A DNA stretch of 64,000 nucleotides, taken from a virus. The notes beneath the pieces are model-generated. The model did no database searches. It was given only the letters and a program-made list of their open reading frames with translations, and had not been told where the DNA came from. How positions within the stretch are numbered: the stretch's first letter is position 1; each line of letters begins with the position of its first letter. The stretch lies in IMG/VR virus record IMGVR_UViG_3300008262_000126, positions 1 through 64,000 of that record, one strand, 5' to 3'. This document shows positions 5,836 through 53,652 of the stretch, one piece after another. The translations under genes were made by a program, and so were the position numbers.

Positions 5836-6545
5836 ACATCCTCCTGAATATCAAGAAGCGATGCGTGAATATAACCCAACCAGTTACAATTGTACCACAG
5901 GTTATTGTTGTTATAAACCGCGCCTTCGGTGCCATTTGCCTCAATAACCACTGTACTACCCTTAGGGTAGACAGCAATGATGTTATTTCCAAATTCCGGA
6001 AGGCTGCGTACGTTGCAGTTTACTTGAAGCTTTGCTATTTTGTATGGTTGTTCTAGAGACTTTGACCATTTTGAAAATTGAGCGTCTGTAAAACCAGAAG
6101 GGTCTATTTTACGACCGGCTGGTCGTGCAATAAAGCGATGCGTTACAAGCTCCAATCCTTTGTGGATCCGAGCCAGCCGAGTCAAACCGGCATACATGTA
6201 ACCGCTCCAGTTAACTTCCTTAGGCGTAAAGTGAACCTCAACTCCAATTGAATTGAGGTTTGCATACGCATCTCTGCTTACTTCGCCGGCGTGCCAGGCT
6301 ACGTAGTGCACAGGATCTAAAACTTGATAAATTGTTCCGTCTTTTCCGATCAGGTAATGAGCGGAAACATTAGGAGAGTTTACTAAGAACGCTAGCTCAG
6401 CCTCACTTCTTGAGTTAGCTGCGCCATTAGTAGTGTGAACAACAAAGGACTTATACGGGCTGTTGCCCGTTCTCAGGCTGTAACCCTGTCCCGGTTTCAG
6501 CACTAGGTTCTTCTGGTGCTGCGGGTTGTTCTTGATTTGCGTCAT
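5832..6545 (-). CDS. N-acetylmuramoyl-L-alanine amidase endolysin with SH3-like tail
   Basis: 237 residues. An Amidase_2-type domain covers about residues 30-155. It has the zinc-ligand His in FVVHTTNGA, the segment SAHYLIGKDGTIYQVLDP, the WHAGE motif in YVAWHAGEVSRDA, and GVEVHFTP; LVTHRFIARPAGRKIDPSGF supplies the later His and the usual RK.DP. A bacterial SH3-like domain follows (about 175-230; LQVNCNVRSLPEFGNNII, LWYNCNWLGYIH) for wall binding. It hydrolyses the bond between muramic acid and the stem peptide to lyse the cell. There is no signal peptide, so release would need the holin. The start overlaps the portal gene end by 95 bases; GAGGTAG lies ten bases before the ATG. Confidence 0.88.
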   Translation of the reverse strand: MTQIKNNPQHQKNLVLKPGQGYSLRTGNSPYKSFVVHTTNGAANSRSEAELAFLVNSPNVSAHYLIGKDGTIYQVLDPVHYVAWHAGEVSRDAYANLNSIGVEVHFTPKEVNWSGYMYAGLTRLARIHKGLELVTHRFIARPAGRKIDPSGFTDAQFSKWSKSLEQPYKIAKLQVNCNVRSLPEFGNNIIAVYPKGSTVVIEANGTEGAVYNNNNLWYNCNWLGYIHASLLDIQEDV

Positions 6546-7890
6546 CAGCTTCTACCTCAAAACTTATTTTTTGTTGCTCTTCCTCATAAGTCGACCCGTA
6601 TAACTGGGCGATAGTATCCTTGCTGATAGCACCAATTTGCTGAGCTTGTATAGCAAACTGGGTCAGTGCGGTCATGTCCTGGAATTGAATTGGACTAAAG
6701 TAAGGTTTAGGCCAGGAAGTCAAGTTGTTTCGTTCTGCGAGATTTTCGTAAAACCACTCAACCCAGGATAGAAGTCGATCGCGAACTTCGGTAAGCGTTG
6801 CCATCGGTCCGAGTGAGGCTATGCGGCTATCAGAGGAGTTGCTTCGAAGAGACTCACCAACAGTGAGAATTCGAGGAAATCCGAGAGCCAGGAAAATGTC
6901 TGCGTTCGGCTCTGCATACTTTGATTCGTTTAGCAGTGCGTCGAGTGGCGGAAGAACCCATTTAATATCCACAGTGTGGTTAGTAAAGAGATTAAAAACA
7001 CGATCACCTGATGCTGCTGCCTGGGCTATTGCCGTTTGCGTTGCTTCGATGTCATCGTCTGTTGCAGGAAATTCGTCACTACCTATTTTCACTTGTCGCA
7101 AAAGCTCGATAGAGCGAGAAACAATAGTACGATCCATTATTTTTAAATATTCTTTATGCTGCATCGCCGATAAAGCGTTCTGCAGGTAAGGTAACGGGTA
7201 ATCACCGTAAGAGACAATATCTCCATAAATTGCGCGCGTATCGGTTAACGGAAACGTTCTTTGCCCTGCCTGAACGGCGCGCACATACTCGGGAGACTGC
7301 TTTAGCAGCTCTTTGTATGCCTCGACGTCGTCAGTACCGTCCATCCGTTTGCCTTTACCCATAATAAAGGAGATTTCGTCGTCGGGAATTTCCAGATACA
7401 CAGCGCGCTGAGTACCAGTCGGTCGTTTTCGCAATCGAATGTTGCTTGCGTTACGAACCCACATGTCTTCCGGAATTTCGACACGTTTTCGAGTTAGGCT
7501 AGGGTTTAGCTTATTCATCATAACGGTCTTGTAGGTAATTCCTGGGACAACCAGACCGTGAATAAAGTACTCGGTCGCCATCAGCTTAAGAAATGGTTGA
7601 ATCTTCTCGGCAACTGCGTCAAAAAACAAAGCGTTATTGTCGTCTTCTGTTTTCTTGTTCCGCAGCTTAGTAATACCGAGATTTACCAACCGGTTGATTA
7701 CAGTTCGCGCAATTGTGTCACGCTCGTAAAAATGCCGGCAGTAATGAATAAGTTCATGGTATGTATACTTCTTAGTGTTATCGAACGGCTTGTTCAACGG
7801 GTCGTAGTACCCTACGACGTTAAGGTTATACGTAAATATTGGGTTTGGCGAAAACCCTGCTACTGCCTTGTTTGAAAGTGTTTTAGTCAT
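6451..7890 (-). CDS. Portal protein
   Basis: 479 residues from ATG 7890 (GAGGTG upstream). It lies directly after the large terminase, the classic place for the portal. It has the usual features: an N-terminal alpha/beta region (YHELIHYCRHFYERDTIART), a clip/stem region rich in long helices (PYLQNALSAMQHKEYLKIMD) and a C-terminal Pro/Gln/Glu-rich tail. The protein should form the dodecameric ring at the head vertex through which DNA passes. The call is from context and fold-type features, not from a single catalytic motif. Its last 95 bases are shared with the endolysin gene in another frame. Confidence 0.75.
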   Translation of the reverse strand: MTKTLSNKAVAGFSPNPIFTYNLNVVGYYDPLNKPFDNTKKYTYHELIHYCRHFYERDTIARTVINRLVNLGITKLRNKKTEDDNNALFFDAVAEKIQPFLKLMATEYFIHGLVVPGITYKTVMMNKLNPSLTRKRVEIPEDMWVRNASNIRLRKRPTGTQRAVYLEIPDDEISFIMGKGKRMDGTDDVEAYKELLKQSPEYVRAVQAGQRTFPLTDTRAIYGDIVSYGDYPLPYLQNALSAMQHKEYLKIMDRTIVSRSIELLRQVKIGSDEFPATDDDIEATQTAIAQAAASGDRVFNLFTNHTVDIKWVLPPLDALLNESKYAEPNADIFLALGFPRILTVGESLRSNSSDSRIASLGPMATLTEVRDRLLSWVEWFYENLAERNNLTSWPKPYFSPIQFQDMTALTQFAIQAQQIGAISKDTIAQLYGSTYEEEQQKISFEVEADDANQEQPAAPEEPSAETGTGLQPENGQQPV

Positions 7891-7892
7891 AA

Positions 7893-10484
7893 TCACCTCG
7901 AAGTATTGTAGGCCGCTGACTTGGCGAGAGCGGTACCTTTAGAAGCAGGTACTGGAACTCGAAGTGCGCCGATAAAACAAAGATAGCTCGCATAGATGTG
8001 GTCATCGTTACTTTCTCCGTGACCGCGAGGGGATACCACGAAATAGTGCATATGTCCGGATGCTCGACGTTGCCGTGCAACACGCTCTAACTGAGAAATT
8101 CCCTCAGCGTCGACTTCCGAAAACACTAAAGTACCGTTTGTGATTTGGCGAATAAGTTCGTTAGTAGCCCATGCTTTAAACGACTCGGTAATTTCCTGGC
8201 TGTCTGAAATAGACCCGACACCGATCTTCTCGTTAAATTGAACAGCCTCTAACTTGGACGCGTATTGACCGCTAGCAAATTCAGGACGCGTTTTCAGGCT
8301 CTGAACAATACCAGCACCACCGCCACCAGCACCGACGTCAATCGCGATTCTACTCGCATTGTACCCACGTGCTAAATAGTCAATAATGCGCTCCTGTTCA
8401 GGATAATCAATGCGTTGAATTCGGTACCGGACGAGAGAGTGCCATATGCCGTCAATAGACCCGAATACCTGTAGTACGGTAGGATCACTGAAGCCTGTGT
8501 CGATTGCAAACACAATACTTTCGCACTTAGGAAGTTTAACAACAGGCAGTGCCTCTTGATACGTACGTCCTTTGTCCTTGTCTGATCCGCTATAACGATA
8601 CGTATAAAAATCAAACGGGAGAATCTTCATCTGATCGCGTGAGATAACTTGGAAAGACGGAGAACCATGCTTTCCTAGGATTAGCTGCTGAAATATGTCA
8701 GAGGATTCCCCACCAAACTTGGAAAGTGCGTCGTCCCAATCAGCCTTTGTGAAGTACGGGTTGTTCGGTGCGGGTATGCGATACTTTTTAAACTTAGGAG
8801 TCTTGACATCCAAGACATACAAAGCTGTGTTACGCATGCCATTTGGCACGCCAAAATATCGCTCCTCGACCTTAGGTTCCCACGTATTCAAGGTAGGCTG
8901 CATCTGATCAAACGCAGGCATTGGAAATAACTGAAACTCGTCGCCCATAATTTTAGGAATGTGCAGACCGACCAAGTTGTTCTCGCCTTTGCTACCAGCG
9001 ATACGAGCGTTTAGACGGTGCCTTCGAGCTCCCATTTGAAAGTCTAACGTTCCTTTGGACCTGTTGACATTGTTATTCAAAAAGTCTTTCAGGAGGGGAG
9101 AAACGGTAAATTTTAAAATTACCTTGTCTAGAATAGGAGTTAACTGGCTGCTGTTGGGCGTCACCATAAGTTGCTCAGGGGTTCTGGGAAACTCAATAGA
9201 CGAGTTGAGAACTTGGTAAGTTATCAAGTCCTCTAAGATAACTGAGTTGTGTACAACAATGTTTTCGCTTATGTATGTTTCATCGTGGTAAACGTGTACT
9301 GAGTAAGTCAGCTGCATTCCATGCCGCTGCTTGCTGCTAATGGGCTCCCAAGAGTACCAGTCAAGCACCGAGTCAGTTGTTTTTAAATTAACTGATACCC
9401 CCGGAACTTTGAAGTGGTTCCAAAACGCGTGAGCGGCGCTTCTGTCGTACGTTTCGACAACCCATTGAGAGTCGTCAATGTCAAAGATATGATGCTCTTC
9501 TGCATGATCTGCGACTTTGTATGATTTCGTTTTTACACCAAAATACAGAAGAAGTTCCTGCCAATCCTGCACATACTTCCAATTAAACAGTTTGATCTTT
9601 ACGCAGTCAAGCGAAAGATCTCCGTGCTGAGCATAGGCTGCTTCGAGAAATATACGGATGTTATCCAGTTTCTGTGTTTTGAGCCAATCAAGTTTGAACA
9701 CCCGACGGTAATCTTTGCCATACGCACCAAGCTCAATCTTAAGCTGATTGAGATAGTGCCTTACTCCGCCGGCTTTCATACGTTCAATGTAAACTTTACC
9801 AGACTCGTCTTTTCTGTATTGCAGGTACAGCGAGTTTGCTATTTCTTTAATCTCCGCATCGATGCGTTTGTAGCGTGGGACTATTGCACCCGCAGGTTTA
9901 AAATAAACACTGCCTGTGGCAAGATAGCCGAGAATGCGAAGTTCTGCCCAGCTCAGCGTATTGTGTACGCAGTGATCTGTGGGAAGTTTGTTCATAACGG
10001 CCACGACATCACCGACTTCTAAGTCCTGCATAAGGACAAAGCCTTTGGGTGTCATCACTGGATGTACGTCGGTAGCTTTGAGACTGTGGCCCGACTTAGT
10101 GGTAATTGAGTAGCATTTTTTCCATTTGTCTTTCCGGACAAACGCACGCCTCTGTGTAAAATCTCCCTTAATCGAATAGCCGTATGTTATAAAAGAGGGC
10201 TTCTTCAAAAGAGCCGTAATCGTCTGATACCCCTCGTTTGTAAAAACTCGAGCAGACGCGGGTTGGCATTTACCAATAGCGCGACCGCCAGTCACTACGA
10301 CGTGGCGTGACTGATCAGTCAGTATTTCTTTCTGGTAAGGCCGGAAAGAAAATTCTTCCTCCGGCCAGTTGCCCCTATTCATATCGGCATTGTTAGTAGA
10401 GCGTAGAAACTCGTTAAGCCAAACAGGATCTTCGAGAATTTCTAAGAGCGCTAACTCAGCGTCGTCAATCTTCGCTTTTAACAT
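7893..10484 (-). CDS. terL: Large terminase subunit (TerL) interrupted by an intein
   Basis: 863 codons from ATG 10484 (AGAGGAAG upstream; an ATG 39 bases earlier is less well placed), of which 341 belong to an intein. After splicing the enzyme would have about 522 residues. It has the ATPase P-loop GGRAIGK joined to SVILEDL after splicing, Walker B IMGDEFQLFP, and the RNase H-like nuclease acids in VFAIDTGFSDPTVLQ, RIAIDVGAGGGGAG and SNDDHIYASYL. It cuts concatemeric DNA and drives it through the portal. The intein sits between the Lys and Ser of the P-loop, so the unspliced protein cannot bind ATP properly. It overlaps the putative small terminase by 20 bases and ends 2 bases before the portal. 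Confidence 0.93.
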   Translation of the reverse strand: MLKAKIDDAELALLEILEDPVWLNEFLRSTNNADMNRGNWPEEEFSFRPYQKEILTDQSRHVVVTGGRAIGKCQPASARVFTNEGYQTITALLKKPSFITYGYSIKGDFTQRRAFVRKDKWKKCYSITTKSGHSLKATDVHPVMTPKGFVLMQDLEVGDVVAVMNKLPTDHCVHNTLSWAELRILGYLATGSVYFKPAGAIVPRYKRIDAEIKEIANSLYLQYRKDESGKVYIERMKAGGVRHYLNQLKIELGAYGKDYRRVFKLDWLKTQKLDNIRIFLEAAYAQHGDLSLDCVKIKLFNWKYVQDWQELLLYFGVKTKSYKVADHAEEHHIFDIDDSQWVVETYDRSAAHAFWNHFKVPGVSVNLKTTDSVLDWYSWEPISSKQRHGMQLTYSVHVYHDETYISENIVVHNSVILEDLITYQVLNSSIEFPRTPEQLMVTPNSSQLTPILDKVILKFTVSPLLKDFLNNNVNRSKGTLDFQMGARRHRLNARIAGSKGENNLVGLHIPKIMGDEFQLFPMPAFDQMQPTLNTWEPKVEERYFGVPNGMRNTALYVLDVKTPKFKKYRIPAPNNPYFTKADWDDALSKFGGESSDIFQQLILGKHGSPSFQVISRDQMKILPFDFYTYRYSGSDKDKGRTYQEALPVVKLPKCESIVFAIDTGFSDPTVLQVFGSIDGIWHSLVRYRIQRIDYPEQERIIDYLARGYNASRIAIDVGAGGGGAGIVQSLKTRPEFASGQYASKLEAVQFNEKIGVGSISDSQEITESFKAWATNELIRQITNGTLVFSEVDAEGISQLERVARQRRASGHMHYFVVSPRGHGESNDDHIYASYLCFIGALRVPVPASKGTALAKSAAYNTSR
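9246..10268 (-). mobile_element. Intein in the TerL P-loop, with decayed homing endonuclease
   Basis: 341 codons inserted in frame. It starts with Cys (CQPASARVFTNEGYQTITAL, block A) and shows block B with the T-x-x-H motif (LKATDVHPVMTPKGFVL). It ends with block F/G VYHDETYISENIVVHN, followed by Ser as the first C-extein residue. The middle has the shape of a LAGLIDADG (DOD) endonuclease, but its two helices read ILGYLATGSVYF and FLEAAYAQHGDLSLD, lacking the catalytic acids at the usual ends. Splicing looks intact and homing activity probably lost. The boundaries are precise because the flanks join to a standard terminase P-loop. Confidence 0.92.
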
Positions 10485-11115
10485 CGTCTTCCTCTGCCTC
10501 CTCTTCGTCCCCCAAGATAACATCGTCTTCGATGTCTGATCCTTCGCTTCCAGAGGATCTCGCCTTCTTTACAGAATAGCGGTGTTTTTTACGCCAGCCT
10601 GCGTCTTTAATATCGAAGAAGATGTCCTTCTCCTCACGCTCGGCGGTTACTGGTTTGTTACACTGATTGCAGTTAACTTTAAGTTCAAACGCACTGTGAT
10701 CGTGCATAATTGAAAAGCGCGAAAGAAGTATCTTACAGTTTGGGCAATACAGCTTAATAAGCCGGCGCTCAAGAAAATCTTGAGCAGTTTGCTTCAAACT
10801 GACAATGTACTCCGCCACAGACTCAGAGGAGTTCTGATTGCGTGTCTTTCGGTCAAGCGCAAGGGCTCGTTCAAGTTGCAGATTGCGCTCGATGATGTCC
10901 TTCAAAGAAGAACTTAATCGTTGAATCATGTCAATGTTGTCTACTGGGTCATCTTGCGTCAGTTCCTGTAGTTTTGCTTGAACGCTCTCAACAATAATTT
11001 GATTGTTGATTAGCATTTCCAAATTGGCTTTATCATTTGGGGATGATAATGTAGCCAAGTCGTATTTATCCGAATAGTCCTTCAAAATCTCATCAAACCT
11101 TCGGTTCTTAGCCAT
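10465..11115 (-). CDS. Putative small terminase subunit or terminase-associated zinc-binding protein
   Basis: 216 residues beginning MAKNRRFDEILKDYSDKYDL, with TGGAGGGG upstream. A long helical first half (about residues 25-120; LQELTQDDPVDNIDMIQRLS) is followed by a four-Cys zinc ribbon (YCPNCKILL at about 123 and VNCNQCNKP at about 148) and a Ser/Glu/Asp-rich acidic tail. Its place immediately before TerL, with a 20-base overlap, suggests the DNA-recognition subunit. A zinc ribbon is not standard for TerS, so the role is inferred from position. A hairpin and a promoter-like pair precede it at 11,130-11,203. Confidence 0.5.
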   Translation of the reverse strand: MAKNRRFDEILKDYSDKYDLATLSSPNDKANLEMLINNQIIVESVQAKLQELTQDDPVDNIDMIQRLSSSLKDIIERNLQLERALALDRKTRNQNSSESVAEYIVSLKQTAQDFLERRLIKLYCPNCKILLSRFSIMHDHSAFELKVNCNQCNKPVTAEREEKDIFFDIKDAGWRKKHRYSVKKARSSGSEGSDIEDDVILGDEEEAEEDDVKSED

Positions 11116-11174: not shown

Positions 11175-11203
11175 ATCTAATAATTTGTCAGCGAATCGGA
11201 CAA
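11175..11203 (-). promoter_or_regulatory. Possible leftward promoter within the nrdJ end
   Basis: Minus strand TTGTCC (11198-11203), 17 bases, TTAGAT (11175-11180). The predicted start falls at about 11,168, exactly the first base of the leader hairpin, which supports it. The match to consensus is moderate. Confidence 0.4.
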
Positions 11204-13338
11204 GCCCCGCCTTCGCAGTCTGTTCCCAGGTCGTCGTCGACTTCCACATTCTCGTGTTTCTCAAGAAGTGCGATAATCGACAAGCCTGTTACACCAGAGA
11301 CTTCGGCCAATCGACGCTCGTACTCGAGTTCGTCAATTGCTTCGTACGGCATCAACGGGTAAGCCGTTGTAAACTTTGGAAGGAACGAAACACCAATGTA
11401 GTCTTCCCACTTGCGAAGCAGCAGTTCGATAATATCATCAACTTCGTCGGGACTGAATGTCACGGTGATTGACGTATTATGGTCAGTCCAGTACTTCTGC
11501 AAGATAAAGTAGCGATTAAGCTGTTCAACAGCACTTTCCGTTGCTGAAGCTTTCTTGGCAGACGTTTTAATTGGGAACTCTACAACCCAGGTCAATGCGC
11601 TTTTGAGTGTTGCTTCCTTGTCCGCATCGCTCATGGCTGCAAAGACATCAGGCATGCATGATGTGGCTTCTGGGAAGATTGGATACCCTGACTCGCGCAT
11701 AGCTTGAGCCAGCGGGTCTTTTGACGAGATACGGACACGGCGAACGTAGTGAGGTGCGTACGATGCGTGAGCACCGCTGGAGACAGTAGGAAGTTGAGCG
11801 ATTGTGCCCGACGGCTTAACCGTTGTAACTAAAAGGGGAGTGGGAATGCGGAGTTCAGCTGCATATCCCAGAGCTGCTTCTTGAGCAACCGTATTTATAA
11901 TCGCCAAAACTTCGCGCAATGTGTAAAACTTTAAACGTGAGCGATTTGCGCCATCACGGTCGACAGTACGAATAGCATTTGAGCTTTCTTCGGTAGTCGA
12001 AACACCGAGTGCGTCGAAAGCCTCGACGTAGCCCGTTAGGCTAACTCCAGTCAATCGATCTCGCTGCTGTACTTTATTCCAGTGAGGCAGCTCAAGCTCG
12101 AGTGTGGCCATACGCACTCCGAGACGCGTGGCTTGCACTACTGCACGCTCAAGTTCAATCATATCGAGATACCCACCGTACTCGTCATTCTTAACGAAGT
12201 TACGAACGTTAATTTCGCTAAGGTTACACACACCGTTATCTGCCAAAAGAATTTCCGCACACGGGTTAGTACCGGCATACCAAGGGCGACGTTTTGCCGC
12301 AGCCACAGCATTAATAAAACCTGGCTCGCCGTTGTTCAAAATACGGCTGAACAGCTGCGTAAGCTGCTCTTTGGTTGGTTTCTCAGTGAAGTAAACCGAA
12401 TTGTTACTCATTGAGCGAAACCGCTTGTCTTCTTTAGCGGGGTCGGACCAAAGGTCGACTTTAGCGTCAAGTACCGCAGTGTCGTTAATGTCAAACAAGG
12501 TGATCTCGGAAGAACGACGAACGCCGCCGACAACAACGGCCTCGCCAATCAAGTTCATCACGTCCATAGCCTGAAGCGTCGAAAGACGGTCAGTGCCCTC
12601 GTTCAAGACTTTGACAATCTTCTCGTACATATCCCGCAGTGCTTCATGACCGCTGGCGCGACCGCCAAACGTTTTCAATTGCTCGCCTGCGGGACGGACG
12701 CTATCGTAGTCGACAACGATCTTCTTATAACCCTTGAAGAAGGCTTCAAACAGGGCTTCTAAGCCCCACACCCAGCCTTCCTTGCTATCACCTACCGAAA
12801 GATACATTATGTCGCCATCAATGGCATATTTCGAGAGCTCTTCGCGATCCGCTTTGCGCTTAGCGCTATATTCTCTGTGTTCAATGGTTACGCCGGTGAT
12901 CAGCGCTGGGAATTTGGTTACGTCCTGCGGCAAAACGCGAAAACCTACTCCAGTGCCAAGCATCATCAAATAAAATGCGTCGAGGAACGCTTGTACATCA
13001 TCAACGATCATGAACGAGCAGTTGAAGTTCGAAAGCGGGTACTTCTTAGCAGCCTCTGTGCCACCGGTCCACAAAGTGCGACCTGCTGGAAAAACTGACA
13101 GATTGTACATGGCCTCAAAAAGTTCACGTGCTTCCATTTCCCGATCCAGGCGGTTAGTAATTGCGTCGAGACCCATGCTGTACTCAACCACGCGAGTAAC
13201 AGTCTCTTTCCAAGTTTCTCGTCGTCGCTTGGTAGGTAAATACCGGCTATATGTACGCAGATAGACAAACTGACCGAGCAAGCTCGGCCATTGTGGATTG
13301 TCTTCAAATTTGTTTAAGAATGACTTACTAAGTAACAT
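11188..13338 (-). CDS. nrdJ: Adenosylcobalamin-dependent (class II) ribonucleoside-triphosphate reductase
   Basis: 716 residues, close to the 739 of the monomeric Lactobacillus leichmannii enzyme. The redox Cys pair is seen in SNFNCSFMIVDD and NGVCNLSEINV, the thiyl-radical Cys in GTNPCAEILLADN, and the swinging C-terminal thiols in the final CEGGACPIR. The segment GEAVVVGGVRRSSEITLFD is also typical. It reduces ribonucleotides to deoxyribonucleotides for phage DNA synthesis using vitamin B12 coenzyme and no oxygen. The host must therefore supply cobalamin. The start has AGGAG upstream and overlaps the previous gene by 11 bases. Together with ThyX and MazG it forms the phage nucleotide-supply set. 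Confidence 0.95.
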   Translation of the reverse strand: MLLSKSFLNKFEDNPQWPSLLGQFVYLRTYSRYLPTKRRRETWKETVTRVVEYSMGLDAITNRLDREMEARELFEAMYNLSVFPAGRTLWTGGTEAAKKYPLSNFNCSFMIVDDVQAFLDAFYLMMLGTGVGFRVLPQDVTKFPALITGVTIEHREYSAKRKADREELSKYAIDGDIMYLSVGDSKEGWVWGLEALFEAFFKGYKKIVVDYDSVRPAGEQLKTFGGRASGHEALRDMYEKIVKVLNEGTDRLSTLQAMDVMNLIGEAVVVGGVRRSSEITLFDINDTAVLDAKVDLWSDPAKEDKRFRSMSNNSVYFTEKPTKEQLTQLFSRILNNGEPGFINAVAAAKRRPWYAGTNPCAEILLADNGVCNLSEINVRNFVKNDEYGGYLDMIELERAVVQATRLGVRMATLELELPHWNKVQQRDRLTGVSLTGYVEAFDALGVSTTEESSNAIRTVDRDGANRSRLKFYTLREVLAIINTVAQEAALGYAAELRIPTPLLVTTVKPSGTIAQLPTVSSGAHASYAPHYVRRVRISSKDPLAQAMRESGYPIFPEATSCMPDVFAAMSDADKEATLKSALTWVVEFPIKTSAKKASATESAVEQLNRYFILQKYWTDHNTSITVTFSPDEVDDIIELLLRKWEDYIGVSFLPKFTTAYPLMPYEAIDELEYERRLAEVSGVTGLSIIALLEKHENVEVDDDLGTDCEGGACPIR

Positions 13339-21790: not shown

Positions 21791-24700
21791 ATGTCAGATA
21801 GAATACAACAATTAGTAGGATTAATTCAAACGCTGCTGCTTTTAAAAAGTACTAGTGAAGAGGCTGCTAATGTTTTTGAGAAGGTTATACAAAGTAAGGC
21901 AAACGCGCATGAGGGTGGTTTAGCCGGATATTTAAAAGAAATTACAGCAGACGCTAAAACAGCTACTACAACACTAGCTATATTAGAAAAAGAGATTAAG
22001 GCAGTAAGCGCGCTTCCAGTAAGGGCAGCAGCTGACGAAACTCTTACTTCAGAAGGTACTCGTCCGGCACCCGTAGTTTCGGATGCGGCACGTAAGCGTA
22101 AGGAAGTACAAGATCGGATAGATGACGAACGAAAAGCACTTAGAACAGAGGTGCGTGGTAACAATAGGCCAACAGTTGTAAACGTACATACAGATAGGCT
22201 AAAAAATTATGAACTTTTGCTTGCCCAGCTAGACGAACAAATAGACGAGCGAGAAGACACTCTCAGGGATCTGATCAGACGAACGCAAACTAAAATGAGA
22301 ACGCCGGCAAAAACCTCTCGTTCAAGTTCACCAGTTGCGGATCCTGAGTACGCAGACATGAAATGGGCGCTTACTACACCGGATACTCGTTCCGCTACAA
22401 GTTATGCTGTTACACCGAATCGAGGAGGACGGGTCAGCGTAGCTCAATCGGGCGGAGCAAGGCCTCCCGAAAACGCCTCCGTTTCGGCAATTGTTAAATA
22501 TGTGAATACTCAACTGCGTCACGAAAATCCAGCCGAAACTCGTCCGGAAATTGCCCCGATTGTCGCCGAACTTCAAAAACTTGTAAAAGACCGAGAAGAG
22601 GCAACTGTTCCTGCGGACAAAAATAGAATAAATCAGCAAATTAAGCAAGCATTCAAAAAGATAAATCAATCTTCTGGCACAGTAAGCAACACACAGCGAC
22701 AAACGGCACAAGAATCAATTATTGCCCCAATTATTGAAGCATTGCGGGCAGTAAAATTAGACGACCCTACACTTAATGCGGCAATGTCTCCAGTAGCTAG
22801 CAGTTCTGAAATTGAGTCCGCTCTAACCAGAGCCGTTGAAATGTTGGTAACTAGACTTGAGAATGGTGCAGCAGGAAGAGTAGGAGAAACAGCTTTAAGT
22901 ACTGAAGGTTTTGAGTTTTTACGTCCGGCGGCTTTTGATCAGTTGCTGAAAAGATTGAAAACGGTAGTTGCAGAAGCAACGACTCGACCGGTAATACCAA
23001 GAAGCCGAACAGTCGATCCAGGTACTGCAGAAGAAGTAGATTCTTCTGCGTTATTTTTGGGAACTGACTTTAGCATACAAAATGCCGGAGAAGATGGTAG
23101 TCCTCAAGTAGTAGACGCTTTACGGAGTAGCCGAGTATTTCCGGGACAGGTAACCAGAATCGGTGCTAACATTTCAAAGTATATTCAATCACTCAAAGCT
23201 TCACTAAATCCTACGCGTCGTTACAGTTCGGAAGCGCAAGGCGTAGACGTTCGTGCCGGTTCCCAAGTAGTAGCCGGAAGCTCAAGCGCCGTTTTCGGTG
23301 GGGGCATGGACGCCGAAGTACAAAAGGCGGTTGACGCGCTCTTTTCAACCGTTATGCAGGACATAGAAGAAGGAAACATAAGGCCCGCTTCGATCGCAGG
23401 GCAGACTGTAGACTTGCCTGAATCTCTTGCAAAAATGGTTGTGGAGGCGATTCAATCTAGTTCAATTTTGTCAGAACACACAACAGCTTTCGGTAGAATG
23501 GCTGGAACTCGGGGACCTAGAGGGGCGATAGTTACTGGAGATCCAGTACGAAAGTTTGTTGCTTTGTTTGCGGGCGATTTAATAAATCAATATACTTCGA
23601 CAGGGGCTGTTTCAGATCAGTCCGCTAGTCGTTTTGTAGAGCAGACAGTTGCTCCGGAACAAGAACAGGAAGTTACGTTGGCAGCAACTCACGCAAAACG
23701 TTTGCGCGAAAGACTTGTTTATCAGAGAGATCAGGCAGATCTCAGTATGGTAACTGCGGCTCCAGCAATGGCTAATCGCTACAGAACTGAGTCGGCAAAG
23801 CTTGGCAAAGAGATACAGTTACTGGATGAGATTCTGGCTGAATCTGAAAATCCAGAAGAGGAAAAAAAGTTAGCGCAAAGACGTGGACAGATAGCACTTC
23901 CGGGCAGTAACACAGCTCCCGCGTTAACGCGAGATCAAGCACTAACTGTTTTATTTAAACAGTCTATTGGATCCATTCCTGCAACACCTGATGCGGTAGC
24001 GCCGATTATAAGCAAAGCTCAGGAAGTTTCTGCGGGACTTGCACAATCGGGACTTACAATTCCAGCAAGACCCTCTTATGGAACTAGTCCCGTACAATCG
24101 TTAGTAGAGTATATGACATCCGGTCAGTCTATGGCACTAGACCGTTATCAAACTACTCCAATTACGCAGCAGTTAGACTCAGCCGGTAAAGTGTCGTCAG
24201 GTCAGCAAAATCGAGAGTTTATCGAAATTATAAGCGATGCTTTTGGTTTATCTCGACAGTCTGCTTCTGCGGGTAATGTCATTACTGGTTTGTATCATGG
24301 AGCACGTGCGACAGACGCCAGCGGTAAAATGCTTGAGGGAGAAGAGCTTGATCAATCGCTTGGCGGTGGCTACAGAACAAAGAAAGGTTTGCAATCAATT
24401 GTTCAAGCATCCGCAGAGATGGGTAGTTATGGTTCCGGCGGTATTCCCTTAATTGAGTACGCTAAGTTAGCAACTTCAACCGACCTTGACGCAGAGGAGC
24501 AGAGTCTATTTCAAGAGGTGCAGGCAAAACTTCCGCATCTGCAAGCAATAGATTCTGATTCACTTAAGCAACTTGCTGAGTTAGACACGTCGATGGATCC
24601 CAAAGAGTTAATTAAACGCGTGTTGACTTTGGCAGCCCCAGCAATAAAAAATCAAATAGTTGCTTCAATTAGGCGACGAGGTGGCGCTGCCGGCATGGGA

Positions 24701-27700
24701 GTTGATGAAGTCACTCAAATGATTTCGGATTACGAAACAGCCGGGGTTGCTCCAGCAGGGTTTCAAGATGAATTTCGCGCTTTAGCGATGTTTGATCCTG
24801 CTAACATAAACACAACCGATGTATCTGCAGCGGTTAACCGATCGCTTTCGTTGTTCAGCAATTTATTAACTGACAACGTGCAGTCAGGCGAAGGTATGCC
24901 TCAGTTTGCAGCCCGAGTTTTAGGAAGACAGGACCGACTAGTTGGTACGGGTCCGGATGTAGCTGCAGCCGTTCCTGATCAAGGAGCGTCTTACAGCTTG
25001 ATGGGCAAGGGTGCAGAAGTTGCAAATCAAGAGTCTGGTCAAGTTGTCGGTGGTACGTATGGTCGCAATGTAGAAAATCAAATAAAAATTCAAGAAGCAA
25101 TGAGTGAGTTTGAGCAGTTAACTGCTGAAATAGAGGAAATGCAGAGAAGGATAGCTTTAGCACCTCACGAAGCTGATAAAGTACTTCCAGTTATCGAGCA
25201 AAAAAACAATCAACTTAAGATTCTTAAACAAAAACTTGATACTTACAAAGCATCAGAACCAGATCCTATTTCTCAAAAATTTGAAGCTCTTTCCACAATT
25301 GCCCAAATGGACAATATTGACCCCGCAACAAGAAGTGCTGCAATTTACGATTTAGGCATTATGCAGGAAATTTTTAATCAAACTGGCCGATACCAGATTG
25401 ACGAATCCCAAGGATACGGAACTGGTACTCAAGAGCAACGCCTTACTAATTTGATGGCTCATAAAGCAAAGTTAGACCGTTTGCAAAAATTGAGAGAAGA
25501 ACGAGCAGCGTTAGAGGCAGAATCACCTGGAGATGGTCCCGCTAAGGCAGTTGAAGCTGTAATTAAAGAATCAGACGTTGATGGAGAAATTGCAGCTGTC
25601 ACAAAAGACATTAGCGACATGAAGTCCGAAGGTACGGGGTCAGAAAAAAAAGTTGATGCTTCACCTTATGCAAATATGAATATGACGGAATTGGAAGATC
25701 TTTATCAGAGATCTTATCAAAAATATGATAGAGCTATGTCTGCTGTACCTGGAATAGAAGAGGCAACCCAGAGATACCACAACTATGAAGGCGAGGATGA
25801 CGAACAAGAATTAGAAATCTTAGTAAAAGCTCTTGAAGGCGCACGGGAAAATAACCCAGAGGTTGCAAAACTGTATCAAGAGCATCAAGCAGTAAGTGAC
25901 GAGTATGAACGCCGTATCAAGGCTAATATCGAAAATAACCGCGCAATACAAGAAAAATTATCTCCTGCTGAAACTTCGGTTATGGCAACTTCAGTGCCAG
26001 GAACAATAGATGAAGAAATAGCAATAGACGAAAACGCCGTACCTTTAAAAATCCCTAGAATAAATCTTACAGAAAGTAAAGATATCACTGATGATGTTAC
26101 GGCTGAGGATAAGTCAGTTTTTGTACACCCGGCTACTGTGGAAGCACAACTTATAGAATCTCCGGCCTTTACGGCATTTTTAGCTGGTAAAGAAAATCAG
26201 ATAATAAGTGGTAATCAAGATCGACTAGCCATCCGTCAAGATGCGGAAACAGGTGCACTTACGGCAGCGGTGGCTGATGGAGCGAGTTCGTCTTGGTTTT
26301 CCGCGAGGTTAGCCAACATGCTAGCAGAAGAGGCTGTTAACTTACCTACAGACGAGCCTTTTACAACCGAATCAATTTTATCGAGAGTTAATAACAGATC
26401 GGCACAAGAACAAGTAGACAAAATTTTAGAATATTTTACTGACGAGGACTATCAAACCCGTTATCAATTGCAACGTATGGGTTTAGAAAAAAATGATAAA
26501 TCGAAAGAAAAATTTAAAAAATTTTTACAACCTTTTGAAGAGGCCGGTACAAGCCCAACTGTCAGAGAACTTATAGCATTTTTACACGGTGAAAAAGCTG
26601 CAAACGACCCTGCCAACATTGGCCAGGTTGCCGGTGCTACGTTTGCCGGTTATCGCAGAACAAGAAGTTCAGAAGGCTACAAGCATGAATTTCTTACTGC
26701 TGGAGATGCTTTAATAGAATCGGCTGATTTAGGTATTGCTAAAGAGACGCTGGGCGAAAATAAAACGAATCCGGACGGAACTCCCTACACAGGACCGCAA
26801 ACTGCAGGGATTATATCAACTGAAAGTGGAATAGCTCACCCAGGAAAAGTTTTGACAATTGAGTCAAAAACTCCGGCACGTGTTTTCTTAGCGTCCGACG
26901 CATATTCACATAGCGGAGAATTCAGCCGACTTGATCCGGAAGTTGATGCTGGAGGTTTTGTTAACTTAGGTGAAAGACTGCTTCTTGACGAGGGGGAGTT
27001 AGGTACTCGGCAAGACGACCGAAGTTTTATAGGCATTACAGGAAGCGAGCAGACGGGTCCTGTAGTAAAGACCGGCGGACTTGCTGAAGAGGGATTTACA
27101 GGATTAGAATTTACCGATCAGTTAGAAGCGTACTTAGCACAAGAAAAACGTAAATTAAGTCAGATAAATCAATTGCTGACCGACAGGCCGGATATAGATA
27201 AAGAGTTAGAAAGAGAACGTCAAGCATTACTTAAATCTGCTGAAGCCGAAGTTGAACAACAAGGACAACTTGCAGAAGAAATAACAAACACACATCGAGC
27301 GATTGCTGATGAATATGACGCGGTTGTTGACAGATTAATGAAAAACAGATACGCCGGTCCCGAAGAAAAAGCTCAAGATAGCGAAAAACATCGAAAACTG
27401 GCGCAAACGCCGGAAATGCAAGAAGTTTTAAAAGCAAGAAGAGAGGCGTTTAAAGCTGAGCAAAAGTACAAGCAGATAGTAGCCGAAAACCCGCCGACAA
27501 GTGCAGAAAAAGCTAAAGTAGTTACAGAAAACAATATTCAGGCATTAACAGAAGAGCTTACAAAAAGAGGAGTAATCTTACCGACTGAGACAACACCAAC
27601 AGCGGAAACTGTGATACCGGTAACTGACGTTACATCGGTTGCTGAAGAACCAAAAAGAATTGCAGATGAGCCTGTTAAAGTCAGTGCCGAAATTAAAGCA

Positions 27701-30700
27701 TCGCCCGAAGAGATTCAAAAAAGAAAAGCAGACCTAGATTTACAAATAGCCGAAGCCGCAAGAGAAGCAGCACAATCACAACAGGTTATAGAGTTAATGC
27801 AAAGACAGGCCCAGGGTTTAGACACGGAAGATAGCGACATTCGTTTTGTTGTTGACAATACAGGCATTCCGGTAAGTTACGAAGATAAGCAGGTAATTGA
27901 CCGAACTTCTTTGCGTCCGCTAGTGCGGACAAAAATGACTGTTGATGACACTGGTGAATCAGGATTTGTTTCTAATTTGAATGTTAGAGATATCGTAGAT
28001 CAAGCAGAAGCAGTCAAGCCAACCGCCGAGTTAATGGACGAAATCGGTAAAATGTCCGATGCCGATCTCGCTGCTGTCAAAATGCCTTCAAAGGTTCTTA
28101 CAGACGAAGAGAAAGAAAAATATCAATACTTAAGACAAGCGTCGAAACAGGCAAAAGAAGAAGCACGTAAAATCTATGAAGCTGACACTCCCCTTGGTGA
28201 AGCAATTCGAAAATATTACAGAATTACCAACGTAGAAGAGCGGGACAGAATGACGCTGGGAGACATAGGAAGCCCGGCAATTCCCGGATTAAAGGAAGCC
28301 GTAGCTGAGTACGAATTACAGCGGGGTATATCACTTGGATCAGACGAGCAAACGGGTAAGCTTGGAAAGGCGAGTGAAGCCACGCCACTACAACTCGCCG
28401 CTCGTTTATTCAGATCGTCTCGTGCAGCAGTCAGAGCGTATGAAACAGAATTTGGAGTAGAGCCTGCGTTTAGTGCGCGCGAGGTAATGGACGAGCTCTT
28501 AGCATCTTCCGCAAGAGCCGAAGTAGATAGCGCTCCAGCTGGATCTGCAGAAACAGCGGTAGCATTGGACAAAACTATTTCAAGCTTTGAAGGGGGAATA
28601 CCTGAAATTAAAGGCTCTACTGATAGAGCACCGAGAAGACCTAGAAGAGCCCCGGCTGATGTAGTTGCAGACGTTGAACAACCTTACACTGAGAATCAGT
28701 TAAAGTATGCTCGAGCACAGGTAAGGGCTTTAGCTGGCAGAACCGACCTCACAGCCGAACAAAAAAGACAATTAAGCGAAGCAAGAAAAAAATTACACAA
28801 TTATGCAATGAAGCGGTTGACGACTAATTTCGGGGACAACAAAGGCGTGATGCAAATTGCAAACGTAGTTGCCGGTTTAACTCCTCCTGATTGGGCAAAA
28901 GATGACGTGCAGAGTGCCCGTGTTTCGGCAATATCACAAGCAATGGCTGACTTAAAACCAGGACAGTTGGCGAAGTTGAAAGACGTCGATCTTAGAGACC
29001 CAGTGCAGATGGATATACTTTCAAAAGATCCGGCGCTGCAGCCAATAATGGCGTTGCTGGCTGATCAGGATATCGATGCCGCGCTTAAGTATAGATCAGG
29101 CACGACGGAATACGATGAGGCAAAAGGACTGCTATCTGCAATTGAAGGGGCAAAGAAACGCTTACCTGTTCCTGAGCCAACGGCTGGCGTACCGACTGAC
29201 GCAAGGCGATTGTTTTTTGACTTAGAAACAAACTTTGCAAAAAAACCTGAAGACCGGTTAATCTTTCAAGCAGCTACAGGCGTTAACGACGGAAAAGTCA
29301 GCGACATGTACGCAGTTCCCTTAGACTCGAGCGCTGAGGAGATAAACAGAATAGCGGTGGACCCCACAATTCCCGATGACGAGAAGAGAAAATTAATTAG
29401 AGAACTCGCTCTTAAACGAGCTGGAAAACCTCCTTTAGTTGAAGGCAGAGCCAGCGGTAACGACGTTAGTTCGGGAGTTATCGATAATCTAGTTAATGCT
29501 GCAATGTCGGGACGTCAAATACTTACTCAAGGCCAAATACGCGGAGATTTACAGAGTCAAATTCTAGCTGCCACTACAGTAGCAGGGCATAACATTGAAA
29601 CCTTTGACTTGCCCACAGTATACGGCGGCGAAATGGCTGTTCCGGATGCAGTAAAAGCAAAAACAGAAGACACATTGCTGATGAGTCGTAACATGTATCC
29701 AGGATCTCACACACTGAGTGATACATATGAGGTGGTTACCGGAGATCCGCTAGTCAACGCTCACGATGCACGCGCAGACACGGAAGCAGTGCAAAGAATA
29801 TTTCCTCAGGTTTCTGATCCAGAGGAACGTGCCAAAATAACAGAAGCATATTTAGCAAAACATGGAATTACAATGGATTCCGCTGTTGGTCAGCTTGTTG
29901 CTACACCTAAGATAGCAGACATTGCAGATACGGAAGAACGAAAGAAAGCATCTAGACAAGTGGCTGAGGCGCACGCTTTCTATCAACCTTTAGCGGACAT
30001 GCAGGACTTTACACGCCGTATCGCAAAAAGCGGCGGTAAAACAATACTGAGGGACGCTGATAAAACAGTGGCTGCTGAACAAGGCTGGTACGATATGAGT
30101 CCAGCTGCGAAAGCTAGTTTATTCGAACGAATGAACAAAATGTTTGTAGGACATACTAAGCTCAAAGGGAAAAAAATAGAAGAACTTGACGACGCAGAGT
30201 TAGGCGAGTTTGTTAAGGAAATAAATGCTACCTACTTAGAACCCAATGCAGATGCGGCAGTAGGTGGGGATTTCGGCGGAATGAAAAGACTGCTGGAGGA
30301 AAAAGTAGGCGGGAAAATGGCGTTCTCTGATTTTCGAACACCAGCTGAACGCCTTGCAGCCATTAAAGGTAGAACAATTGAAGATGTAATGAGCACAGCA
30401 GGTTCTTCGGGTGTTAAAGTTGGTCCTGCCATAAGTAAAGAAACAGTGGGCGATGCAATTGAAGATATATCATTAGCAACTGAAAGACCGACAAAAGTGA
30501 AAACTCCCGGATCTGCACCATCGGTAACTGCAAGTACTTCGGACGGCGGCTCAAAAGAACCCCCAAGAGAACCACCAGTTACTTTCTCAGACGACGCGGA
30601 CTCTGGCGAGCGTGGTGGTCCTGGCGGCGGTATTACTACAATAGCTTCGGCTACTATCGACACGTTGCATGCCGGTGCGGTAGAGATAAACATTCATGGT

Positions 30701-33700
30701 GGTAACGTTACTATAGATGCCAACTTCAGTGCAGGCGCTGCAGAGAAAATGCAAAAATCGTTAGTGTACATATCAAATAAAGATGGTATGAACGTAAACG
30801 GCGATGTCACTAGTGTAGGTACGGGCGGTGGTGGCGGTGGCTATCGACGGGTGTCAGTTGCTGACAGATCTATATTAAATCAACTTGACGCAGCAAAAAA
30901 CCAGATAGCTGGGCAACTTCAAACAGAAACTGACCCAGCAACACGAGAACGGTTGCGCGGTAACCTCAATGAGGTCAGCAGGCAAGCAATTCGCGCCATT
31001 ATTGAGCCTAAGGTAAAAGCAATTGATAGCGAAGGTATGGAACCTTACGTCAACGAACGTTTTTACTACGGGGATGAAACAACAGATTCTAAAGAATCGT
31101 TGACATATTACAATGACGCGGTGGCACAGGCACATCAAGACCTCACTACACAACTTGAAGCTCAACAGGCAATTCCAGAAGGAACTGACGGAAGAGATGA
31201 AGAAATTCAGCGAATACAAAAGCAAATATCGTTAGTTGAGGAACTTATCAATGCGCTTACAGAACTTAATCAAGCAGAGCAGCGTGTAGGTAGTGCAACT
31301 TCAACTAGAGCAATTGTTGATCCTACTGAAGTAAAAAAACCAGCATATCCTACGAATAATAGCGGTTATCGAAAGTTGTCTCCAGAAGATCGTGCTTCAT
31401 TAGCCGTACTCGACGCTACAAAAAATTCAATAAGCGAGCAGCTGAGAACTGAGCAAGATCCAGAAGCCAGGGCAAGATTAAAAGAAACACTAACCGGTGC
31501 GAGCAAAAAAGCAATTGCAGATATTATTAAACCGAAAGCAACAAAGCTACTTGGCTATGGTTTTGTAAATACTGTCGACGCCTTATCAACATCTCCAGAA
31601 GACTCATTAGTTAACTATAGTCAGGCGGCGCAGAGCAAACTTAGCGAATTAAACGGTAGATTGTTTATGATCGAGAGCGAGCGAGAAGATGCTCCGGGTC
31701 GTGAAGAAGCAATCGAGAGAACTAAAAGAGAAATACAGCAAGTCCACGAGCTTATAGACGCTTTGACCGAGCTTAATCAGGCTGAGCAACGAGTTGGTGC
31801 AGCTGGTGCAACACGTAATGCTGAAAGTCCTTACGGACCAAAACCAACTGCAGATCCGCGTGCAGGAGCTAACAAATATAGAAAAGTTTCGTTTGCGGAC
31901 CAGGCTTCTTTTAATGTTCTGGAATCTACAAAAAATGAGGTATCCGCAAGACTGAGAGATGAGACCGATTCAGCAGCACGTGACGCGCTGCGTCAGAGTC
32001 TTGTAAATGCAAGCGAGCGGGCTATTAACGAAGTTATTAAACCTAAAGCGGCGAAGGTATTAAATCCGACGCAGCTTGCGGCGCTTTCGGCTTTGCCAAT
32101 GGGTCCTGAAGAAGCACTAGTCTCTTACAATGAAATGGCCCAGTATAATCTCAATAATCTCTCAACCGAATTGGCTACACAAGAGGCACTGCCTGAAGGT
32201 ACAAGCGGAAGAGATACAGAGATTGAAAGATTAAAAGCAGAAATAGCCGCGGTTGAGGAGCTCATTAATGCACTGACCGAATTAAACGCTATAGAACAAC
32301 GCGTTGGATCGGCAAGTGGTACACGCAATGTAAACAGTCCGTACGGTACTACATCCGGAACTGGTACGGGAACATCAGCAAGTAAATACTACTCAAGAAA
32401 AGCGAAAGAAGACGAGCAGGTATTTCTACAGTTAGCGCGAAACTCATTCGATCAATCAGCGGGGTCTATGGGTATTGCGGGCGGAACAACGGCCGATTCT
32501 CGTAAATTTTTAACAGACCTTACGCGCAGTACTGCAACGACAATGATTAACAGTTCGGGAATACAAGCTCCGGGAATGGCCGCCGATATTGCAGCGATTG
32601 CAGCAACAAGTCCCGAAGTACAGTCAGCTTATGATGATGCAGCTAAAAGTTTAACAGATTTTAGTGGAAAAGTTGGCGGTACAATTACAGACGTCGCTGA
32701 CGACTTATTTACTGTAGTTTCTGGATTAGAGAAGCTGAAAGCGGCGCTTACTCCTATAGCAGCTACCTCTCCTCAAGCAGCAGCAGCTTTGGCGGTTGTT
32801 CAAACTGCTATTGACGAAACAAGTGCGGCTGGAAAAGAACAGCGGGGAACTGCAGGTGTAATTGAAACGGACAATCGAAAGAAAGTTTCGCTTGTCGAAG
32901 AACAAATGCAAGCAGCAGCAAGTAGACCTGGATTTTTTGCCGGCGGCAGACGTGAAAGAGAAATGAGGCAGATACAAGAGGGATACATAAGAGACACCTT
33001 CGGTAAGGAAGGACTAGACGCCCTTATGCACCGAGGTAGAATAAGAGCATACACAGCAACAGGAAAACGTGTCGACATGGCGCAAGCAACTGTACAAGAG
33101 CAGCGAGACACAGTTGAACGATTACAAAAACAAGGTATTAATATTACTGCTGAAGATATGACAGGTATAGCACGAATGTCCGGCAGAGTCGAACAGACAA
33201 AAAGATCTGCACCGATGGGCGATAAGTTATTCTATGCTGCGTCAAAAATTAGAGACACGCAGAGTGTAGTTCAAGCGGCAGTTGATACTGTTACTAGTCT
33301 AGCAAACATACCGCAAATGGCCGGAGGAATGATTCAGCAGTTTGCGAGTAGTGCTACAGGATCTAACAGGGTAATGACAACCGCAAGAGGGTTAGCACTT
33401 GATCCAGAGAATTATACAGCCGCATTAAATGCGGCTGATATGCAGAGAAAGCAATTCGGCGGCTCATTAACTTCAAATCTAGGTCAAGTTACTAGCTTTA
33501 TTCCCTTGTCAAACGCGTACGGTGTAGATATTGGAAAGTCTGTAAAAGTAGCTAGAAAATTAGCCGCGTTTGACCCAGCTCAGGGTATGGAAGGTGCTGG
33601 CATAGCAATCAAAGAATTTCTATCTGGTAACGTTTCGTCTCTCTCACGTCGATTTGAAATTAATCGATCCGCGCTTTCTAAAATTAATACCGGCGATGCA

Positions 33701-53341: not shown

Positions 53342-53652
53342 AACCTAAAGAGTTTCCAGAACAGGCACTATTAGCACCCTTATTAGGCAACGAAGTGATC
53401 TTGAAGTTTGACGGGCTCGAGTTTCCTACTCGGTTACTAAGCGCTGAGCTTCAGAAACTGACTGGGCTAGCCAACCCGCCAGATAAGAGAATGAATGCTG
53501 AGGGTAAAATGTACACTCCTAAGTGCCTTCGTCTCGTTTGCGAGGCGGGGGCTCTTGTGATGTGTATAGAGGATTACAAGTTTGTGGCCGTGCACAAGGG
53601 TGTTGCCTTTATGTTCGACTCGTATACCTTGGAGGTTCGTCTTGCAAGTTAA
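53338..53652 (+). CDS. Hypothetical protein, 104 residues
   Basis: Begins MKPKEFPEQALLAPLLGNEV. It has two Cys, mixed alpha/beta and no recognised family. It lies between resolvase-like nuclease and polymerase genes, overlapping the first by 4 bases, while the polymerase TTG start lies inside its last codons. It could be a polymerase-associated factor. The sequence gives no direct hint. Confidence 0.65.
   Translation: MKPKEFPEQALLAPLLGNEVILKFDGLEFPTRLLSAELQKLTGLANPPDKRMNAEGKMYTPKCLRLVCEAGALVMCIEDYKFVAVHKGVAFMFDSYTLEVRLAS

What the first reader, a model, noticed from the sequence alone, without database searches (positions are those of the whole stretch)
9246..10268. Intein in the terminase P-loop with decayed homing endonuclease
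The insertion splits GGRAIGK from S, so TerL has no ATPase until splicing. The LAGLIDADG helices have lost their catalytic acids, so the element seems kept without homing. It may be maintained because it times or conditions DNA packaging, or it may be a dying parasite.
Basis: partly seen in the sequence, partly recalled or inferred. Interest (0 to 1): 0.65.

Follow-up and report, generated by a model that had tools for sequence, protein, structure and literature searches.

The report
Immobile terminase intein, dead endonuclease kept
An uncultured phage's DNA-packaging motor is made as a dead precursor that should switch on only after a protein insert (an intein) cuts itself out, and every related virus we could check carries the same insert with its DNA-cutting part broken yet carefully preserved, so the insert no longer spreads by cutting but also is not rotting away.

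Summary
Confirmed. Window 9246-10268 (-) is a 341-residue class 1 intein between Walker A GGRAIGK and S of the phage large terminase; AlphaFold gives HINT plus LAGLIDADG domains (pLDDT 91.9; closest TliVMA, Z 27.6). The "dying parasite" reading fails. All 81 IMG/VR contigs with the P-loop visible, found by their C-extein and down to about 40% identity, carry the intein at the same K|S/T site; no empty allele appears in the clade. In 65 distinct inteins, C1, block-B His and C-terminal His-Asn are invariant; LAGLIDADG motif 2 never has an acid, and no copy has both. Intein and extein trees agree: vertical inheritance, ancestral inactivation. The dead domain is nevertheless constrained: pooled dN/dS 0.04-0.055, against 0.03-0.07 for the splicing domain and 0.025-0.03 for TerL. 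LAGLIDADG helices and HEN-HINT junction are the most conserved parts; predicted DNA-facing strands vary. Most likely a fixed, immobile intein whose dead endonuclease has become part of the splicing scaffold (HINT-HEN mutualism); regulation of packaging is possible but untested. Cultured phiCbK-like Caulobacter phages carry a comparable P-loop intein with degenerate motifs, so the idea can be tested. Kind known; the clade-wide constraint is the notable part.

The parts
10269..10484 (-). TerL N-extein (72 aa from Met14) ending in Walker A GGRAIGK (10269-10289)
   Evidence: start inferred from relatives' N-termini and GAGG upstream of ATG at 10484
9246..10268 (-). Class 1 intein, 341 aa, C1...H340-N341
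9954..10268 (-). N-terminal splicing (HINT) half, intein residues 1-105; block B TDVH at 10062-10073
   Evidence: TIGR01445; C1 65/65, block B T/S 65/65, His 65/65
9378..9953 (-). Degenerate LAGLIDADG homing-endonuclease domain, intein residues about 106-297
   Evidence: PF14528 in 16/34 members; AlphaFold and Foldseek
9915..9950 (-). LAGLIDADG helix 1 (WAELRILGYLAT); catalytic position 119 (9912-9914) is Gly
9624..9668 (-). LAGLIDADG helix 2 (LDNIRIFLEAAYAQH); catalytic position 215 (9624-9626) is His
9246..9377 (-). C-terminal splicing half, intein residues 298-341 (blocks F and G, His-Asn)
7893..9245 (-). TerL C-extein, 450 aa plus stop, beginning with Ser+1 (the Walker A serine)
   Evidence: (phrog_2)
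6451..7896 (-). Portal protein gene directly downstream (context)
   Evidence: phrog_2739 E 3.5e-10

Best explanation
A fixed, vertically inherited, splicing-competent class 1 intein sits in the TerL Walker A motif (K|S). TerL is made as a precursor without a complete P-loop. C1, block-B T-x-x-H, His340-Asn341 and Ser+1 excise the intein and join GGRAIGK to S, giving a 522-aa ATPase. The nested LAGLIDADG domain lost its catalytic acids at or before the clade's common ancestor, so homing has stopped. The dead domain persists because it has become part of the folding and splicing scaffold (HINT-HEN mutualism), and because, with no empty alleles left and an essential catalytic-site insertion, only a precise deletion would be viable. 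Shown by sequence: site, splicing residues, loss of acids, fixation, vertical descent, purifying selection. Inferred: that splicing occurs and that the scaffold role is the cause of retention.
For: Intein models and boundaries. 81/81 contigs with the P-loop visible carry it, in searches seeded on the C-extein. C1, block-B His, HN and Lys-1 are 65/65; +1 is S in 58 and T in 7. Motif 2 acid 0/65, motif 1 acid 9/65, none with both. Length 328-368 aa in all. Pooled dN/dS: HEN 0.042, splicing 0.031, TerL 0.025 (6 pairs); HEN 0.055, splicing 0.067, TerL 0.030 (10 pairs: 157 nonsynonymous changes in HEN against about 1961 expected if neutral). Relative rates HEN 1.50, splicing about 0.97, C-extein 0.84. 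Intein and extein trees: 42/56 splits shared, one well-supported conflict. LAGLIDADG helices (entropy 1.26) and HEN-HINT junction (1.00) are more conserved than the splicing domain (about 1.7); DNA-side strands 2.3-2.5. Fold kept in an intein of 21% identity. Precedent: deleting the HEN largely abolished TliVMA splicing (PMC8966425), and TliVMA is the closest fold.
Against: No splicing or deletion experiment. PhoVMA, also a dead-HEN intein, splices without its HEN (PMC8966425), so mutualism is not general. Low dN/dS shows constraint, not its cause: a DNA-binding or regulatory role would also give it. The dead domain evolves about 1.8 times faster than the C-extein.
Confidence: 0.6

Rival explanations
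1. Conditional regulator: splicing rate responds to a cue (redox, temperature, DNA, procapsid state), so TerL ATPase appears late and the intein is kept as a packaging timer.
For: The P-loop site makes TerL ATPase depend on splicing; clade-wide fixation; conditional splicing is documented for P. horikoshii RadA (PMC5790916) and M. smegmatis DnaB (PMC6195587) inteins, and the idea was proposed for TerL of cyanophage Mic1 (PMC7156551).
Against: No cue-sensing feature was tested or found; the mycobacteriophage TerL inteins tested spliced readily (PMC5050341); Cys at residue 100 is not kept in the distant branches (L083).
Confidence: 0.17
2. The dead LAGLIDADG domain has been repurposed to bind DNA (as in WhiA), for instance phage DNA at packaging initiation or as a repressor after excision.
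For: WhiA is among the structural matches of the distant model and one member hits the WhiA LAGLIDADG model, E 0.0066; the domain is constrained; mean HEN net charge +4.7.
Against: Predicted DNA-side strands are the most variable part; the first-half hairpin is short; net charge ranges from -7 to +12 among members.
Confidence: 0.1
3. Dying parasite: the dead endonuclease domain is decaying neutrally and will become a mini-intein.
For: Homing-cycle theory (PMC3229294); both motifs lack acids; the HEN evolves faster than the splicing domain in the full tree.
Against: dN/dS about 0.04-0.055; no mini-intein or large deletion in 65 distinct copies.
Confidence: 0.05
4. The endonuclease is still active with non-canonical catalytic residues.
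For: Some conserved acids exist near the motifs (E109, E209).
Against: E109 and E209 lie at the start of the LAGLIDADG helices, not at the catalytic end; motif 2 position is H/Y/F/W in nearly all; no empty target allele exists in the clade to select for activity.
Confidence: 0.04
5. The insert does not splice; TerL works as a split or alternative protein.
For: None beyond the absence of an experiment.
Against: All splicing residues conserved in 65 inteins, with conserved TerL sequence on both sides.
Confidence: 0.02

Closest known systems
TerL1-a P-loop inteins of mycobacteriophages (PMC5050341)
   Same: Intein between the invariant Walker A Lys and the next Ser/Thr of a phage large terminase
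   Different: Scattered among phages, with intein-free relatives; the tested TerL1-b and TerL1-c inteins have active LAGLIDADG endonucleases. Ours is fixed clade-wide with a dead endonuclease
phiCbK-like (Dolichocephalovirinae) TerL intein (PMC3556154; JX100813)
   Same: Inserted at K|S of the TerL P-loop, 341 aa in phiCbK, covered in all 49 full-length records found, both LAGLIDADG motifs degenerate in those inspected; profile homology 98.8%
   Different: Pro1 and block-F Cys (class 3-like) rather than Cys1; different TerL family (PPGHAK); HEN dN/dS higher, 0.13-0.30 in close pairs
PhoVMA intein (PDB 7qst; PMC8966425)
   Same: Intein with full LAGLIDADG fold but no catalytic acids; Z 23.4 to our model
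   Different: Archaeal VMA host; splices without its HEN; block E truncated
TliVMA intein (PDB 7qss, 7qsu; PMC8966425)
   Same: Closest solved fold (Z 27.6, rmsd 3.1 over 308 residues); splicing depends on its HEN domain
   Different: Active endonuclease, carries an accessory domain, 429 aa
PRP8 inteins of fungi (as described in PMC3229294)
   Same: Long-term vertical persistence under purifying selection without evidence of horizontal transfer
   Different: There the persisting HEGs are discussed as functional; here the endonuclease lacks its acids in every copy

Membership tests
Class 1 intein | Cys/Ser at position 1, block B TxxH, C-terminal His-Asn, Cys/Ser/Thr +1 | tested here: met
   C1 65/65, block B His 65/65 (T 64, S 1), HN 65/65, +1 S 58, T 7
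Class 1 intein | HINT fold | tested here: met
   AlphaFold pLDDT 91.9; Mtu RecA and Ssp DnaB splicing domains align at 1.4-1.9 A over about 135 residues
Class 1 intein | Self-excision and extein ligation | not testable with these tools
   needs expression
LAGLIDADG homing endonuclease | LAGLIDADG fold | tested here: met
   I-DmoI, PI-SceI, TliVMA matches; PF14528 in 16/34
LAGLIDADG homing endonuclease | Acid (D/E) at the catalytic position of both motifs | tested here: not met
   window G119 and H215; motif 2 acid 0/65, motif 1 acid 9/65, both 0/65
LAGLIDADG homing endonuclease | Horizontal mobility into empty alleles | tested here: not met
   no empty allele in 81 contigs; congruent trees
TerL P-loop (K|S/T) intein site | Insertion between Walker A Lys and Ser/Thr of a large terminase | tested here: met
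   GGRAIGK|S in the window; intein-free distant TerL of GX15bay reads CARSIGKS
HINT-HEN mutualism | Splicing requires the HEN domain | not testable with these tools
   only constraint and conservation pattern available

The most novel reading that the evidence does not exclude
A domesticated intein: a whole phage clade has made protein splicing an obligate step before DNA packaging, and the dead LAGLIDADG domain has a selected, non-nuclease function (regulating when TerL becomes active, or binding DNA).
Probability: 0.22. Interest if true: 0.8.

Novelty: new member of a known kind. Interest (0 to 1): 0.5.

Why it matters
The homing-cycle model says that once an intein is fixed its endonuclease should decay and then be lost. 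Here a dead endonuclease has been kept at full size and under strong purifying selection through a clade whose terminases have diverged to about 40% identity. That is a natural experiment on why dead endonucleases persist: structural dependence, regulation, or new DNA binding. Cultured phages of Caulobacter with a comparable intein allow a direct test in a laboratory strain.

Tried and rejected
Relatives in GTDB genomes: none with the intein or extein profiles, so host not identified. Cultured phages by C-extein of the window: none. Overlapping antisense ORF 9624-10022 as the cause of constraint: not conserved in relatives. Foreign base composition: intein GC 0.45 and GC3 0.48 match exteins (0.47, 0.47), so no sign of recent arrival. 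Codon-model omega with IQ-TREE: ran but printed no omega; pairwise NG86 used instead. Other inteins or LAGLIDADG genes in the 72-kb record: none. My first reading of the Mesorhizobium phage intein as Cys1-starting was corrected: aligned to phiCbK it is class 3-like.

Full report
Observation. On the minus strand, ORF 7893-10523 encodes a large terminase interrupted by a 341-codon in-frame insert at exactly 9246-10268...VVVTGGRAIGK | CQPASARV...ISENIVVHN | SVILEDLITYQ.... The insert scores above the cut-off of NCBIfam intein_Nterm and just under that of Pfam Intein_splicing; the flanks hit terminase (phrog_2, E 1.6e-19), and the next gene is a portal.

Structure. AlphaFold on an alignment of 34 relatives gives pLDDT 91.9 and pTM 0.91. 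Foldseek and VIA-align 2 match whole bifunctional inteins: TliVMA (7qsu, Z 27.6, 3.1 A over 308 residues), 2cw7, PI-SceI, PI-PfuI and PhoVMA, and the splicing half alone matches Mtu RecA and Ssp DnaB mini-inteins at 1.4-1.9 A. The same architecture is predicted for a relative whose intein is only 21% identical (identity; pLDDT 88.4; TliVMA again first, then among others I-DmoI and WhiA).

The endonuclease is dead. Window motifs ILGYLATGS and FLEAAYAQHG carry Gly and His at the catalytic positions. In 65 distinct inteins motif 2 never has an acid there (Y, H, F or W in nearly all), motif 1 has one in 9, and none has both. The shared aromatic state in motif 2 points to a single ancestral inactivation; motif 1 then drifted. 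Loss of activity itself is inferred from residues, not assayed.

Fixed and vertical. Searches seeded on the C-extein, not on the intein, returned ever more distant terminases. All 81 contigs in which the P-loop is visible carry the intein at the same K|S/T point; 16 further contigs are cut off before it, nine of them within the intein. Intein-free outgroup: phage GX15bay, CARSIGKS. Intein and extein trees share 42 of 56 splits, with one well-supported conflict, and pairwise distances correlate at 0.94. Contigs are not fully independent samples, and intein-free sisters beyond the reach of the patterns cannot be excluded.

Not decaying. Length stays 328-368 aa. Pooled pairwise dN/dS for the dead domain is 0.042 (6 pairs) and 0.055 (10 pairs), against 0.031 and 0.067 for the splicing domain and 0.025 and 0.030 for TerL. 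Under neutrality about 1961 nonsynonymous changes were expected in the dead domain in the larger set; 157 were seen. Over the full tree it evolves 1.8 times faster than the C-extein. These are NG86 estimates on few pairs.

Where the constraint lies. Mean site entropy is 1.26 in each LAGLIDADG helix and 1.00 at the HEN-HINT junction, below the splicing domain (about 1.7), while the strands that would face DNA score 2.3-2.5. This is what a scaffold would show, and not what a domain selected for a fixed DNA target would show. The boundaries come from the predicted secondary structure; surface mapping was not done.

Mechanism. Before splicing the Walker A Lys and Ser are separated by the intein, so no ATPase; splicing by standard class 1 chemistry (established knowledge of inteins) restores it. 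The retention of the dead domain is best explained by HINT-HEN mutualism, shown for TliVMA and absent in PhoVMA (PMC8966425), together with the difficulty of precise loss once no empty allele remains (argument in PMC3229294). Regulation of packaging was proposed for cyanophage Mic1 TerL (PMC7156551) and remains possible but is not shown here.

Relation to known inteins. TerL P-loop insertion between Lys and Thr is the published TerL1-a site (PMC5050341). The phiCbK-like Caulobacter and Brevundimonas phages carry a 341-aa (phiCbK) intein at K|S (PMC3556154), in all 49 records with full coverage (GenBank and RefSeq copies both counted; the most distant, a Mesorhizobium phage, at 31.5% identity), and the Dolichocephalovirinae representatives inspected also lack acids at both motifs. 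Their inteins are Pro1, class 3-like; profile comparison shows homology to ours over most of the length, as expected for LAGLIDADG inteins. Constraint on the HEN there is weaker. The Mesorhizobium phage intein keeps an Asp in motif 2 but not in motif 1.

Verdict.

Noticed in passing
L234-L239 (phiCbK, Gurke, Kabachok, Colossus, BL47, Bajun TerL): A cultured phage subfamily (Dolichocephalovirinae) also carries a fixed TerL P-loop intein, class 3-like with Pro1, whose LAGLIDADG motifs lack acids in all representatives inspected.
   Followed up: partly
window 21791-38356 (+): A single ORF of 5521 codons, about a quarter of the window, with no Pfam match in either half.
   Followed up: partly
window 11188-13338 (-): B12-dependent (class II) ribonucleotide reductase gene without an intein, two genes upstream of terL.
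   Followed up: partly
window 53582-55588 (+): Family A DNA polymerase with 3'-5' exonuclease domain.
   Followed up: no
L053:3461-6298 (Mesorhizobium phage Cp1R7A-A1 TerL): Intein at the TerL P-loop; motif 2 of its LAGLIDADG domain keeps Asp while motif 1 has Ala, perhaps a half-inactivated stage.
   Followed up: partly
L240:514-2907 (Gordonia phage Nordenberg terminase): TerL intein without a LAGLIDADG motif recognisable by eye, inserted far downstream of the P-loop.
   Followed up: no
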